Source: Pseudolabrys sp.
GTDB lineage: Bacteria > Pseudomonadota > Alphaproteobacteria > Rhizobiales > Xanthobacteraceae
Length of the DNA: 64,000 nucleotides
Assembly (NCBI GenBank): GCA_029980465.1
Contig: JARYIJ010000001.1
Coordinates: 930,001 to 994,000 of the forward strand
Reading direction: 5' to 3'
Shown: in pieces, positions 26,134 through 40,958 of the stretch
Layout: every line of letters begins with the position of its first letter
Position numbering within the stretch: the first letter of the stretch is position 1
The notes under the pieces: model-generated
Seen by the model: the letters and a program-made list of their open reading frames with translations, nothing else
What the model was told of the DNA's origin: nothing
Databases searched by the model: none
Translations under genes and position numbers: made by a program

Positions 26134-26209
26134 GGCCCGGTGGCGGAGTGTTTACGCGGAGAACCCCGCAAGGTTCTCGAGCCAGGTTCAATTCCTGGCC
26201 GGGCCTCCA
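26134..26209 (+). tRNA. tRNA-like gene without a normal anticodon arm (Leu/Ser-type)
   Basis: The 76-nt unit has a perfect 7-bp acceptor stem (GGCCCGG/CCGGGCC), discriminator T and an encoded CCA. The D arm is short, of class II type (GCG-GAGTGTTTA-CGC), and the T arm is perfect (CCAGG-TTCAATT-CCTGG). Between them, where an anticodon arm plus a long variable arm would be expected, there is only one hairpin, GAGAACC-CCGCAA-GGTTCTC (26159-26178). Its 6-base loop and lack of T33 do not make an anticodon loop; CCGCAAGG resembles the loop of a class II variable arm. The simplest reading is a Leu/Ser-type tRNA that lost its anticodon arm. It could be a pseudogene, a non-translational tRNA-like RNA, or an attachment-site relic. 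Confidence 0.55.
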
Positions 26210-33910: not shown

Positions 33911-34819
33911 ATGGCCAACGGCACGACGATGGACTGGGACAAGCTGAAGGTGTTCCACGCCGCAGCGGAGGCGGGCTCCTTCACGCATGCGGGCGAGCGG
34001 CTCGGCCTGTCGCAGTCAGCGGTGTCGCGCCAGGTCTCGGCGCTTGAATCCGAGCTCTCGGTTTCGCTGTTTCACCGCCACGCGCGCGGCCTGATCCTCA
34101 CCGAACAGGGCGAACTGCTCTACCGCACCGCGCACGAAGTCTTCATGAAGCTCGAGGCGGCGCGCACGAAGCTCACCGACAGCCGCGAGCGGCCGAACGG
34201 CGAGCTCAAGGTATCGACCACGCCGGGCATCGGTGTGGACTGGCTGACGCCCAAGCTCGGCGAATTCCTCGATCTCTATCCCGACATTCAGATCACGCTG
34301 ATCACCTCGGAGGAAGAACTCGACCTCGCCATGCGCGAGGCCGACGTCGCCATTCGTCTGCGCCAACCGACGCAACCTGACCTCATCCAGCGCAAGCTGT
34401 TCTCGGTGCATTTTCACGCTTACGCGTCGCCGGATTATCTCAAACGCTTCGGCACGCCGCGCACGCACGAGGAGCTCGACAAACACCGCATCGTGCTGCT
34501 CGGCGGTCATGTGCCGCCGCATTTCCAGAACCGGCGCTTTCTGCTCGAAGCTGCCCGCGAGGGCAAAGGCGAGCGTACGCCAAGCTTCACGGTCAACAAC
34601 GTGCTCGGCCTGCTGCGGGCCTGCCAGCGCGGCCTCGGCATCGCGATGCTTCCCGATTATCTCGTCGAGGAGAACGGCGGCCTCGTGCAGTTGTTCGGTG
34701 ACGCGGAAGCGCTCGCGCTCGACGCATTCTTCGTCTACCCGGAAGAACTCAAGTCCGTGGCGCGCGTGCAGGTGTTTCGCGACTTCCTCGTCGCCAACGC
34801 GCAGCGCTGGAATTTCTAG
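33911..34819 (+). CDS. LysR regulator of the LsrB/VtlR type
   Basis: The 302-residue protein has a LysR winged HTH (about 8-67: MDWDKLKVFHAAAEAGSFT, LGLSQSAVSRQVSALE) and a periplasmic-binding-like effector domain (about 95-300). Position directly after trxB and overall sequence match LsrB of Sinorhizobium, a redox-linked regulator, whose Brucella orthologue VtlR activates the AbcR2 small RNA. The only cysteine is Cys238 (LLRACQRGLG), the effector-domain position I recall as redox-relevant in LsrB. Here a candidate LysR box and an AbcR-like RNA gene follow the stop codon. The family call is firm; the LsrB/VtlR equivalence is from context. Confidence 0.88.
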   Translation: MANGTTMDWDKLKVFHAAAEAGSFTHAGERLGLSQSAVSRQVSALESELSVSLFHRHARGLILTEQGELLYRTAHEVFMKLEAARTKLTDSRERPNGELKVSTTPGIGVDWLTPKLGEFLDLYPDIQITLITSEEELDLAMREADVAIRLRQPTQPDLIQRKLFSVHFHAYASPDYLKRFGTPRTHEELDKHRIVLLGGHVPPHFQNRRFLLEAAREGKGERTPSFTVNNVLGLLRACQRGLGIAMLPDYLVEENGGLVQLFGDAEALALDAFFVYPEELKSVARVQVFRDFLVANAQRWNF

Positions 34820-35161: not shown

Positions 35162-36040
35162 ATGTCTTACGTCACGGAAAAAAATCTCACCGATGTCGTT
35201 CTCAAACGCTGGGAAGACATTCCGGATCCGCGTCTGCGGGAAATAATGCAATCCCTCATCAAGCACCTGCATGCATTCGTGCGCGACATCGAACCGACCG
35301 GCGAGGAGTGGTTCAAGGCGATCGACTTCATCACCCGGACCGGCAAGATGTCCGACAACAAGCGGCAGGAGGTGATCCTGTTCTCGGACGTGACCGGCGT
35401 CAGCATGCTGGTCGACGCCATCAATCACCGCGTACCGACCGGCGCGACTCCGTCGACCGTCGAAGGGCCGTTCCACGTTGCCGATGCCCCGCATATCGAG
35501 CATGGCGGTAGCATGGCCGTGGGCGCGCCGGGCATTCCGACCTTTGTCACGGGGACTGTGCGGGGGCTCGACGGCAAGCCGATTGCGGGCGCGATTCTCG
35601 ACCTGTGGCAGACCGACGGCGAGGGTTTATACGAGTCCCAGCGCGGCAGCGAGGAGCCGTGGATGAGGGGCATCTATCATTCCCAGGCCGACGGCAGCTA
35701 TGCGGTCCGCACCGTGGCCCCGATCGCCTACACCATCCCGATGGATGGCACCGTAGGCGCGCTCATGGACAAGACTGAGATCAGTCATATGCGCCCGGCG
35801 CATATCCATTTCGCCGTCAGCGCCCCCGGCCACAAGGGGGTCGTCACCCACCTCTTCCGGAAGGGCGATCAGTACATCGAAACCGACGTGGTCTATGGCG
35901 TGAAGGAGCCCCTGATCGTGGAGTTCACGAAAAAGTCAGGAGGGAAGACGCCGACCGGGGAGGTGCTGAACGAGCCGTTCTACGAGGTGCACTACGACTT
36001 TGTGCTGCAAAAGGAGGCGGCTGCAAAAGCTGCCGCCTGA
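35162..36040 (+). CDS. Intradiol ring-cleavage dioxygenase, hydroxyquinol/catechol 1,2-dioxygenase type
   Basis: The 292-residue non-haem Fe(III) enzyme cleaves a 1,2-diphenol between the hydroxyls. An N-terminal helical dimerisation domain (about 20-100, with TRTGKMSDNKRQEVILFSDVTGVS) precedes the catalytic beta-sandwich. Iron ligands are the Tyr in GEGLYESQ, the Tyr in VAPIAYTIPMDG and the His pair in MRPAHIHFAVSAPGHKGVVTHLF. The subclass looks closer to hydroxyquinol dioxygenase than to catechol or chlorocatechol enzymes, but substrate is not proven. It stands alone after the small RNA gene and ends in a terminator. The usual partner, maleylacetate reductase, is not in the window. Confidence 0.9.
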   Translation: MSYVTEKNLTDVVLKRWEDIPDPRLREIMQSLIKHLHAFVRDIEPTGEEWFKAIDFITRTGKMSDNKRQEVILFSDVTGVSMLVDAINHRVPTGATPSTVEGPFHVADAPHIEHGGSMAVGAPGIPTFVTGTVRGLDGKPIAGAILDLWQTDGEGLYESQRGSEEPWMRGIYHSQADGSYAVRTVAPIAYTIPMDGTVGALMDKTEISHMRPAHIHFAVSAPGHKGVVTHLFRKGDQYIETDVVYGVKEPLIVEFTKKSGGKTPTGEVLNEPFYEVHYDFVLQKEAAAKAAA

Positions 36041-38512: not shown

Positions 38513-39991
38513 ATGGGAAAGGCGAAATCGCGCCCCCGTGCCGCCTGTCAGGTGATTGATTTGACCGATTTTATTCCGGCCCACCCGCCCCGATTTACCG
38601 AGACGCCGTCGGCATGGCGCCGGCTTCAAGCCGGCCGCAAGAACTTCCTCGCCATGTGGGAGGAAGAGGCATTCGAGACCGACGTCAGCATGATCCGGAT
38701 CCTGCTGCGTCAGGCCCTGCTCTGCAACAATCCCGAGTCGGTGCAGTACGCCTTCAGCATCAAGAACGAGAGCTTTGAGCGTAAATCGCCGCAGATGCGG
38801 TTCGCCTTGTCGCCGCTGCTGGGCGACGGCCTGTTCGTCAGCGACGGCGAAATCTGGCGCCAGCGCCGCAAGATCATCACGCCGATCGTGCACATCTCGC
38901 AGCTTGGCCGGTTCGCGCCGGCGATGATCGACGTCGCCAACGAAGCCAGCGAACGCTGGAGTGCGATGGATGGCCAAACCATCGACGTCCTGAACGAAAC
39001 GGCGAAGATGACCGCCGAGATCATCTGCCGCGCCGTGTTCGGGCAAAAGCTCGGACACGATTTCGCATCGCAGATCGTCGACGGCTTCAGCGAATATCAG
39101 CGGCTGATCGACCAGATTGACCTGTTCGCCTGGTTGAGCATTCCCGACTGGGTGCCGCGGCGCAAGAATTGGGCGATCCAGAGCTCGGTCCAGCGCATCC
39201 ACGCCGTGCTGACCGAGGTCATCGAGAAGTGCCGCATTCAGAAGGACAGTGGCGAATACGCCATCATCCACCGCCTGTTCGACGCCCGCGACGAAAGCGG
39301 CCGACCGCTGTCCGACGCCGCAATCCGTAATGAGATCGCCGTGCTGTTCATGGCCGGCCACGAGACCACGGCAAACAGCCTGACGTGGAGCTGGTACCTG
39401 ATCTCGCAGGCGCCGGAGGTCGAGGCCAAGCTGCATTACGAGCTCGAGCGCGTGCTGGGCGGGCGGACGCCGACGCTGGCTGACGTGCCCGAACTGATCT
39501 ATACGCGCGCGATCTTTGAGGAAGCGATGCGGCTCTATCCGCCGGTGCCGATCCTGCCGCGCGAAGCCCTGGTCGACGAGCAGTTCAAGACGCTGCGAAT
39601 CCCGAAGGGCACGCTGGTGTTTGTCGTGCCGTGGCTGCTGCACCGTCACAAGAATCTGTGGGACAGACCGGACCATTTCGTGCCGGAGCGCTTCCTGCCG
39701 GACGCCGCAGCGAAAATCTCGAAGTTCGCCTATGTGCCGTTCAGCATCGGCCCGCGCGTCTGCGCCGGGCTGTCGTTCGGCCTGCACGAGGCCATTTTGT
39801 GCCTCGCGACGCTCGCCCAGCGTTTCACGCTGCGGCTGGCGAACGGACATGAGGTGATGCCGGTGTGCCGTTTGACGACACGGCCGGACGGCGGCATGCC
39901 GATGGTGCTGCAGACCCGCGAGCGCAAGACGATGGCGCCGACCGCTGTGCCGGATGCCGTGGCGGCCTGCCCCTATCACCATAATGCCTGA
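38513..39991 (+). CDS. Cytochrome P450
   Basis: The 492-residue haem monooxygenase has all P450 marks: the I-helix AGHETT (281-286), the ExxR pair Glu337/Arg340 in EEAMRLYPPVPILPREA, the PERF-type loop VPERFLPD and the haem loop FSIGPRVCAGLSFG with the axial Cys417. No membrane anchor is seen, so it is soluble, needing separate ferredoxin partners that are not in the window. Sequence resembles the CYP4/CYP102-like fatty-acid hydroxylase side rather than hopanoid or camphor types. Its last 8 bases overlap the acyltransferase gene, so translation is coupled, which points to a lipid or fatty acyl substrate. Confidence 0.95.
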   Translation: MGKAKSRPRAACQVIDLTDFIPAHPPRFTETPSAWRRLQAGRKNFLAMWEEEAFETDVSMIRILLRQALLCNNPESVQYAFSIKNESFERKSPQMRFALSPLLGDGLFVSDGEIWRQRRKIITPIVHISQLGRFAPAMIDVANEASERWSAMDGQTIDVLNETAKMTAEIICRAVFGQKLGHDFASQIVDGFSEYQRLIDQIDLFAWLSIPDWVPRRKNWAIQSSVQRIHAVLTEVIEKCRIQKDSGEYAIIHRLFDARDESGRPLSDAAIRNEIAVLFMAGHETTANSLTWSWYLISQAPEVEAKLHYELERVLGGRTPTLADVPELIYTRAIFEEAMRLYPPVPILPREALVDEQFKTLRIPKGTLVFVVPWLLHRHKNLWDRPDHFVPERFLPDAAAKISKFAYVPFSIGPRVCAGLSFGLHEAILCLATLAQRFTLRLANGHEVMPVCRLTTRPDGGMPMVLQTRERKTMAPTAVPDAVAACPYHHNA

Positions 39992-40958
39992 GACAGCGCC
40001 GCCGCTGCGCTGGCTGTTCGAGGATCCCGACCGCCGGTGTCAGGCGTTTCGCTACTGGTTTCGCGATCCTGTCGTCGGCACCGTCAATCTCGGTATCCAC
40101 TACGGCATGCGCCTGCTGCCGATCGACGCCGCGTCATGGATCGGCGCGCATCTTGGTGCCTTCGCCAAATATCGCTACCCCGACAGCGATGCTCGCGCCC
40201 GCAAGCTCTGGATCAGGATCCGGCCGGAGGAGGCGGATGAGGTCGACGAAGCGATCGCCCGATTGTGGCGCAACGTCGGACGCACGATGGTGGAGTTTTC
40301 GGTTCTCGATCGCTTGTGGGACGAGGGACGGATCACGCTGGTCGGGAAGGAGAATGTCGAGGCGGCGCGCGCGGCGAACCGCCCGCTGATCGGCATCGGC
40401 CTGCATCTCGGCAACTGGGAAACGATCGGCCTGACGCTTGCGCATCTCGGCTTCGAGGGCGGCGTCATCTACATGCCGCCGGACAACCGGTTTGACCACG
40501 CCATCGCCAACGTGGCGCGCGGACGGATCGCCAGGAAAATCCTCGGCCAGAGCGTGCAGGAGGTCGCGATCAAGGCCCGGCCCAATGCCGCGGCCGAGGC
40601 GTTCCTGCTGCTGGCGCGGCAGAAAAAGCAGCTTCTCGTCTACGCCGACGAGCTGTCGCGCGGACGCGTGTGGGCGCCGGCATTCGGCCGCGAGCTTCGC
40701 ATCAACGGCAACATCGGCAACATCGTGCGTCTCGCGCGGCTGACGAACGCCGTGGTCGTGCCGATCTATTGCGTGAGACTTGGCGAGACGGCGAATTTCC
40801 GCGTCATCGTGCTGCCCCCCATCGAACTGGCCAGGACGGAAGACCGTGACGCCGATATCGCGACGAACGTTGCCGCGATCGACAGGCTGATCACGCCGGT
40901 CATCCGCGACCATCTCGACCAGTGGTTCTTCGGGCTCGACTTCGAGTTCGACGGCTAG
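39984..40958 (+). CDS. Lysophospholipid/lipid A-type acyltransferase (HtrB/LpxL-like)
   Basis: The ~324-residue protein belongs to the LPLAT/HtrB family that adds late acyl chains to lipid A or other lipids at the inner membrane. The catalytic HX4E motif is GLHLGNWET, and the following GVIYMPPDNRFDHAI, LARQKKQLLVYADE and TNAVVVPIYCVR segments are family-typical. There is a single N-terminal hydrophobic/amphipathic part rather than a clear membrane anchor. I use the ATG at 39984, which overlaps the P450 stop (39989-39991) by 8 bases. Pairing of a P450 with an acyltransferase suggests that a hydroxylated acyl chain is attached to a lipid. Substrate not proven. Confidence 0.88.
   Translation: MPETAPPLRWLFEDPDRRCQAFRYWFRDPVVGTVNLGIHYGMRLLPIDAASWIGAHLGAFAKYRYPDSDARARKLWIRIRPEEADEVDEAIARLWRNVGRTMVEFSVLDRLWDEGRITLVGKENVEAARAANRPLIGIGLHLGNWETIGLTLAHLGFEGGVIYMPPDNRFDHAIANVARGRIARKILGQSVQEVAIKARPNAAAEAFLLLARQKKQLLVYADELSRGRVWAPAFGRELRINGNIGNIVRLARLTNAVVVPIYCVRLGETANFRVIVLPPIELARTEDRDADIATNVAAIDRLITPVIRDHLDQWFFGLDFEFDG

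What the first reader, a model, noticed from the sequence alone, without database searches (positions are those of the whole stretch)
38513..40958. P450 gene overlapping an HtrB-type acyltransferase: a lipid-tailoring pair
Seen: the P450 stop lies inside the start of a lipid A-type acyltransferase gene (8-base overlap), with complete catalytic motifs in both. Inference: co-translation implies a shared substrate, for example hydroxylation of an acyl chain before or after transfer onto lipid A, ornithine lipid or a hopanoid-linked lipid. The electron-transfer partners are elsewhere.
Basis: partly seen in the sequence, partly recalled or inferred. Interest (0 to 1): 0.55.

Follow-up and report, generated by a model that had tools for sequence, protein, structure and literature searches.

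The report
P450–acyltransferase pair for polyketide-made sphingolipids
Two overlapping genes, an oxygen-inserting enzyme and a fatty-acid-transferring enzyme, travel across many bacteria with genes for an unusual polyketide-built sphingolipid, so they most likely decorate that lipid rather than ordinary lipid A.

Summary
In detail: a complete P450 gene (38513-39991) overlaps by 8 nt a complete LpxL-superfamily acyltransferase (AT) gene (39984-40958). The proposed substrates (lipid A, ornithine lipid, hopanoid) are not supported. In relatives the pair sits with a type I PKS, an SPT-like alpha-oxoamine synthase (AOS) and an SDR, the genes of the sga/rkp-1 sphinganine pathway; in two Legionellales MAGs all five form one run. 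Of 50 genomes with this P450, 47 have the AOS, against 26 of 277 family genomes without it. The AT follows the P450 directly in 41 of 80 loci. The window's genome has a PKS-AOS operon 1.5 Mb away. I infer that the P450 hydroxylates the PKS-made sphingoid chain and the AT acylates it, probably on the new hydroxyl. Against: no close KDSR-type SDR and no KpsC/KpsS in this genome; three genus-mates have the P450 without the AOS; 17 of 50 P450 genomes lack the AT. A P450/acyltransferase branch of this pathway was not found in the library searched. No chemistry was tested.

The parts
38513..39991 (+). cytochrome P450, 492 aa, fold nearest to long-chain-lipid hydroxylases
   Evidence: Pfam p450; intact motifs; nearest folds CYP97, CYP184A1 with oleic acid, CYP4B1, CYP102A1
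39984..40958 (+). LpxL-superfamily acyltransferase, 324 aa, separate clade from the genus's own LpxL
   Evidence: PF03279; HX4E motif; tree; fold like PatA and LpxM
39984..39991 (+). 8-nt overlap ATGCCTGA of AT start and P450 stop (likely translational coupling, inferred)
   Evidence: sequence; 4- or 8-nt overlaps in 27 of 41 AT-adjacent loci elsewhere

Best explanation
The pair is a tailoring module of a polyketide-type sphingolipid pathway (sga/rkp-1 type). An iterative type I PKS builds a long acyl chain and an SPT-like AOS joins it to an amino acid, probably serine, to give a 3-keto-sphinganine (in this genome both genes lie at G000:C1:2451029-2459907, 1.5 Mb from the pair). An SDR reduces the ketone. 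The P450 hydroxylates the long chain. The AT then acylates the lipid, most likely on the hydroxyl that the P450 made, as LpxL and LpxM acylate a chain hydroxyl, less likely on the amino group. Shown here: the genes, their intact motifs, the conserved overlap, operon linkage in relatives and genome-wide co-occurrence. Inferred: substrate, order and position of each step. Graded: membership in the PKS/AOS pathway about 0.75; hydroxylation followed by O-acylation about 0.4.
For: Five genes in one run, PKS-AOS-P450-AT-SDR, in L223 and L234. PKS, AOS and SDR next to the pair in the relatives G024, G004 and G073. AOS present in 47 of 50 P450 genomes against 26 of 277 P450-lacking family genomes; in a class sample of 385, 4 of 5 P450 genomes against 9 of 380 others. 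The window's genome has a complete PKS (KS-AT-DH-ER-KR-ACP) whose gene overlaps the AOS gene by 4 nt. The nearest solved relative of the AOS is serine palmitoyltransferase. P450 fold neighbours act on long lipids; AT fold neighbours acylate lipids and glycolipids (their acceptors recalled). A Shinella plasmid carries capsule genes, SDR-AOS-PKS and P450-AT together.
Against: In this genome the pair and the PKS-AOS are 1.5 Mb apart, and there is no close KDSR-type SDR (best of 37 SDR matches 34%). Three genus-mates (G022, G029, G031; 94, 90 and 89% complete) and G156 (88%) have the P450 but no AOS. Three of 50 P450 genomes lack the AOS and 17 of 50 lack the AT. Four family genomes have the AT without the P450, three of them with the AOS, which fits an N-acyltransferase acting on unhydroxylated sphinganine better than my order. 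26 of 41 AOS genomes in the family lack the P450. The sampled genomes are related, so the Fisher p-values overstate independence.
Confidence: 0.6

Rival explanations
1. The AT is the ceramide-type N-acyltransferase of PKS-derived sphingolipids, and the P450 hydroxylates the base or its N-acyl chain independently.
For: AT beside SDR-AOS-PKS without the P450 in G233 (L123); P450 without AT in 17 of 50 genomes.
Against: AT without P450 is rare (4 of 20 in the family, all draft genomes of one genus, 79-91% complete). The nearest solved folds, LpxM and PatA, acylate hydroxyls (recalled).
Confidence: 0.25
2. The pair modifies the lipid anchor of a capsular or other surface polysaccharide: a PKS/AOS lipid carries the polysaccharide, as proposed for the rkp-1 lipid carrier. 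This adds a purpose to the best explanation rather than excluding it.
For: KpsC-type genes directly upstream of the P450 in L173, L193 and L247; capsule or polysaccharide export genes beside the pathway in G004, G073 and the G300 group, in Shinella and in the rkp-1 region; rkp-1 lipid carrier in print.
Against: No KpsC/KpsS (PF05159) in this genome, and none of my capsule-export models hits within about 20 kb on either side of its PKS-AOS. MYb115 makes the lipid as free and phosphoglycerol sphinganines.
Confidence: 0.3
3. One reading: hydroxylation and acylation of lipid A, ornithine lipid or a hopanoid-linked lipid.
For: PF03279 membership; LpxM-like fold.
Against: Separate clade from the genus's LpxL; no curated cut-off reached; patchy distribution that follows the AOS, whereas LpxL-like genes are nearly universal in the genus.
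Confidence: 0.08
4. The co-occurrence with PKS-AOS is indirect: both ride in exchangeable surface-polysaccharide islands without a shared substrate.
For: Pair and PKS-AOS are apart in many genomes: same contig in 13 of 28 compared, within 60 kb in 10 of those.
Against: Single-run operons with short overlaps in Legionellales, and the AOS is nearly always present even where the two are unlinked.
Confidence: 0.15

Closest known systems
sgaAB(C) PKS-derived sphingolipid pathway of Pseudomonas fluorescens MYb115 (PMC12134224)
   Same: Iterative type I PKS next to an SPT-like AOS; KDSR-like SDR in relatives of the window's genome
   Different: P450 and acyltransferase are not mentioned there (0 occurrences in its main text); here they are linked to the pathway. 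The window's genome lacks a close SDR
rkp-1 region of Sinorhizobium (rkpA-G-H-I-J), K-antigen lipid carrier
   Same: PKS-AOS-SDR order and homology
   Different: The rkp-1 region read here has no P450 and no AT of this kind; it has a KpsC-type and a sulfatase-fold gene, and PF05159 is absent from the window's genome
LpxL/LpxM (HtrB/MsbB) late lipid A acyltransferases and mycobacterial PatA
   Same: PF03279 domain, HX4E motif and fold
   Different: Separate clade; no curated cut-off reached; tied to P450 and AOS rather than universal
Fungal sphinganine-analogue clusters (fumonisin, sphingofungin)
   Same: Same logic of PKS, AOS, KDSR-type SDR (fungal KDSRs named in PMC12134224 section 8) and P450 (recalled)
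   Different: Fungal; no LpxL-type acyltransferase known to me (recalled); no homology tested beyond the AOS hit to SphA

Membership tests
Cytochrome P450 | Haem-Cys loop, ExxR, I-helix acid/Thr motif, P450 fold | tested here: met
LpxL/LpxM lipid A late acyltransferase | PF03279 domain and HX4D/E motif | tested here: met
LpxL/LpxM lipid A late acyltransferase | Equivalog-level score, or grouping with the genus's own LpxL | tested here: not met
   86 bits against a cut-off of 273 for the best model; opposite sides of a 100/100 branch
LpxL/LpxM lipid A late acyltransferase | Acylates Kdo2-lipid IVA | not testable with these tools
   needs biochemistry
sga-type PKS sphingolipid pathway | Iterative type I PKS and SPT-like AOS in the same genome | tested here: met
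   G000:C1:2451029-2459907
sga-type PKS sphingolipid pathway | KDSR-like SDR of the same family as in relatives | tested here: not met
   best of 37 SDR matches 34% identity, E 2e-20
sga-type PKS sphingolipid pathway | Pair encoded beside the PKS-AOS (a mark of this proposed branch, not of MYb115) | tested here: not met
   1.5 Mb apart in this genome; side by side in G024, G004, G073, L223, L234, L226
sga-type PKS sphingolipid pathway | Product is a sphinganine | not testable with these tools
   needs lipidomics
rkp-1/Kps capsule lipid system | KpsC/KpsS-type gene (PF05159) | tested here: not met
   0 matches in G000; 3 of 43 genomes in the genus, all weak

The most novel reading that the evidence does not exclude
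Many Proteobacteria make a hydroxylated and acylated, polyketide-built sphingolipid by a five-enzyme line (PKS-AOS-SDR-P450-LpxL-type acyltransferase), a bacterial counterpart of the fungal sphinganine-analogue logic, in which the P450 creates the hydroxyl that a repurposed lipid A-type acyltransferase then esterifies; in capsule-bearing species this lipid anchors surface polysaccharide.
Probability: 0.3. Interest if true: 0.75.

Novelty: new variant of a known kind. Interest (0 to 1): 0.6.

Why it matters
Bacterial sphingolipids made by a PKS were reported only in 2025 (PMC12134224). If this pair belongs to them, they are not only free and phosphoglycerol sphinganines: there is a widespread branch with oxidised, acylated forms, made by recruiting an LpxL-type enzyme. 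It gives a testable product for a P450 and an acyltransferase that annotation files under lipid A, and it bears on the open question of what the rkp-1 lipid carrier of K antigens is.

Tried and rejected
Lipid A, ornithine lipid and hopanoid as substrates: rejected as main reading. Kdo-capsule anchor in this organism: not supported (on L249, L130, L250). Viral contigs hold no relative of the P450. The single-sequence search of solved structures with the AT found nothing up to E 1; the alignment did. Genes directly upstream in the window (L,D-transpeptidase, intradiol dioxygenase, LysR) and downstream (tRNA-His, phasins, histidine kinase) gave no link to lipids of this kind. I did not search for redox partners. 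Paralogous P450s as a control: by my hand reading, 155 of 296 family genomes have only a more distant P450 match and 6 of those have the AOS, against 15 of 19 with the ortholog.

Thresholds were set after seeing score gaps. In the family, P450 E<=1e-100 and AOS E<=1e-120 lie in clear gaps; the AT limit (E<=1e-28) does not, since G277 (7e-29) lies near an LpxL at 5e-25, but the tree places G277's AT in the pair clade. In the class sample the P450 limit of 500 bits is also a choice: weaker matches follow at 471 bits and below. The counts were tallied by me from the tables.

Full report
What is there. The P450 gene (38513-39991) and the acyltransferase gene (39984-40958) are both complete and overlap by 8 nt. 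The P450 has all haem-enzyme motifs; the acyltransferase (AT) has the HX4E motif of the LpxL superfamily. The AT model is confident (pLDDT 93), and its nearest solved folds are PatA and LpxM. The P450 model (pLDDT 86) is nearest to CYP97, CYP184A1 with oleic acid, CYP4B1 and CYP102A1.

The AT is not the organism's lipid A enzyme. Of 43 genomes in the genus 42 have some match to the AT, but only 5 have a close one (E<=1e-50); the rest are LpxL-like genes of 24-31% identity. A tree of 67 proteins puts the 41 pair-type ATs and 26 genus LpxL-type proteins on opposite sides of one branch with 100/100 support, length 2.38 (the branch is long and the root arbitrary). No NCBIfam lipid A model reaches its cut-off.

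Neighbours in relatives. In G024, G004 and G073 the pair lies beside an SDR, a class I/II PLP enzyme and a type I PKS. The PLP enzyme is an alpha-oxoamine synthase (AOS) whose best solved relative is serine palmitoyltransferase. This is the gene set of the sgaABC sphinganine pathway of P. fluorescens MYb115, where SgaB has SPT activity in vitro and the products are C24-C28 sphinganines and their phosphoglycerol forms (PMC12134224; abstract, sections 7-9 and passages read), and of the rkp-1 region of Sinorhizobium, said to make a lipid carrier for K antigen (PMC4881576, passages). WcbR/RkpA are type I PKSs of capsule clusters (PMC3908369, passages); the rkp-1 gene list is in PMC7902896 (passages). 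The original rkpGHIJ paper is not held.

The window's own genome has the PKS (2507 aa, KS-AT-DH-ER-KR-ACP) and the AOS, their genes overlapping by 4 nt, at C1:2451029-2459907, 1.5 Mb from the pair, beside a RgpF-like gene, a HAD phosphatase, a GlcNAc 2-epimerase-type gene, sulfate-activation genes and a DegT aminotransferase.

Co-occurrence. In 296 family genomes: P450 19, AT 20, both 16 (side by side in 11), AOS 41; P450 with AOS 15 of 19 and AT with AOS 16 of 20 (Fisher p 3e-11 and 3e-12, not corrected for relatedness). In 13 of those 15 the AOS lies within about 30 kb of the P450; the exceptions are G000 and G155, and G155 has a PKS piece on the P450 contig. P450 without AOS: G022, G029, G031, G156. 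In a class sample of 385: P450 (>=500 bits) 5, AOS (>=600 bits) 13, both 4.

Wider. In them the AT follows the P450 directly in 41; of these the overlap is 4 nt in 20, 8 nt in 7, another length in 5, and there is a gap of 1-32 nt in 9. The AOS lies in the flanks (up to 10 kb) in 11 of 80, a PKS only in 2 more. Two Legionellales MAGs (L223, L234) carry PKS-AOS-P450-AT-SDR in one direction with gaps of at most 12 nt. Of 50 of these genomes 47 have the AOS at 532 bits or more, exceptions G326, G351 and G353; 33 have the pair-type AT, 30 next to the P450 and 3 elsewhere. So the dependence is nested, AT within P450 within AOS, with exceptions.

Mechanism. Shown: gene content, motifs, linkage and co-occurrence. 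Inferred: PKS chain, condensation with serine, reduction, chain hydroxylation by the P450, acylation by the AT. I favour acylation of the new hydroxyl because LpxL and LpxM act on chain hydroxyls (recalled) and because the AT rarely occurs without the P450. The four AT-only genomes (G153, G196, G217, G233), three of them with the AOS, speak for N-acylation instead. In G233 the AT sits beside SDR-AOS-PKS, with an IS66 transposase upstream.

Capsule link. KpsC-type genes directly precede the P450 in L173, L193 and L247; a Shinella plasmid carries capsule genes, SDR-AOS-PKS and P450-AT within 25 kb. The ORF at the rkpI place and its Shinella and Caballeronia counterparts are sulfatase-superfamily proteins, as LTA synthase is (the likeness to LTA synthase is from the Caballeronia annotation), which would fit a phosphoglycerol step (inference). 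But the window's genome has no PF05159 gene, so a Kdo-linked capsule is not its likely use here.

Novelty. Searches for these genes together found no paper in the held library that links a P450 and an LpxL-type acyltransferase to PKS sphingolipids, judged by their listings and the papers read; most subscription papers are not held.

Noticed in passing
L104 13597-14106 (G005:C188): A 169-aa open frame joins stretches matching residues 13-57 and 449-491 of the P450: a deletion remnant (or misassembly), followed with an 8-nt overlap by a HAD phosphatase gene.
   Followed up: partly
L130 13915-14436 and L104 14099-14638: The HAD phosphatase next to the AOS in the window's genome is 46% identical to the one after the P450 remnant in G005, a second indirect link between the two loci.
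   Followed up: partly
L130 15602-18408: Sulfate-activation genes (APS kinase/GTPase and PAPS-reductase-fold) beside the PKS-AOS suggest a sulfated glycan or lipid.
   Followed up: no
L262 15382-16920: The ORF at the rkpI place of Sinorhizobium meliloti Ak57 is missing from the plasmid gene table; it is a sulfatase-superfamily protein.
   Followed up: partly
L102 9172-10692 (G022) and L100 9015-10454 (G031): P450 orthologs in genomes without a detected AOS; G022 also lacks the AT. Their role is unexplained.
   Followed up: no
window 35162-36040: Intradiol ring-cleavage dioxygenase gene, with a LysR-type regulator gene at 33911-34819.
   Followed up: no
window 26134-26209: ARAGORN reports an odd tRNA with a four-base anticodon (cgca), probably a false call.
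   Followed up: no
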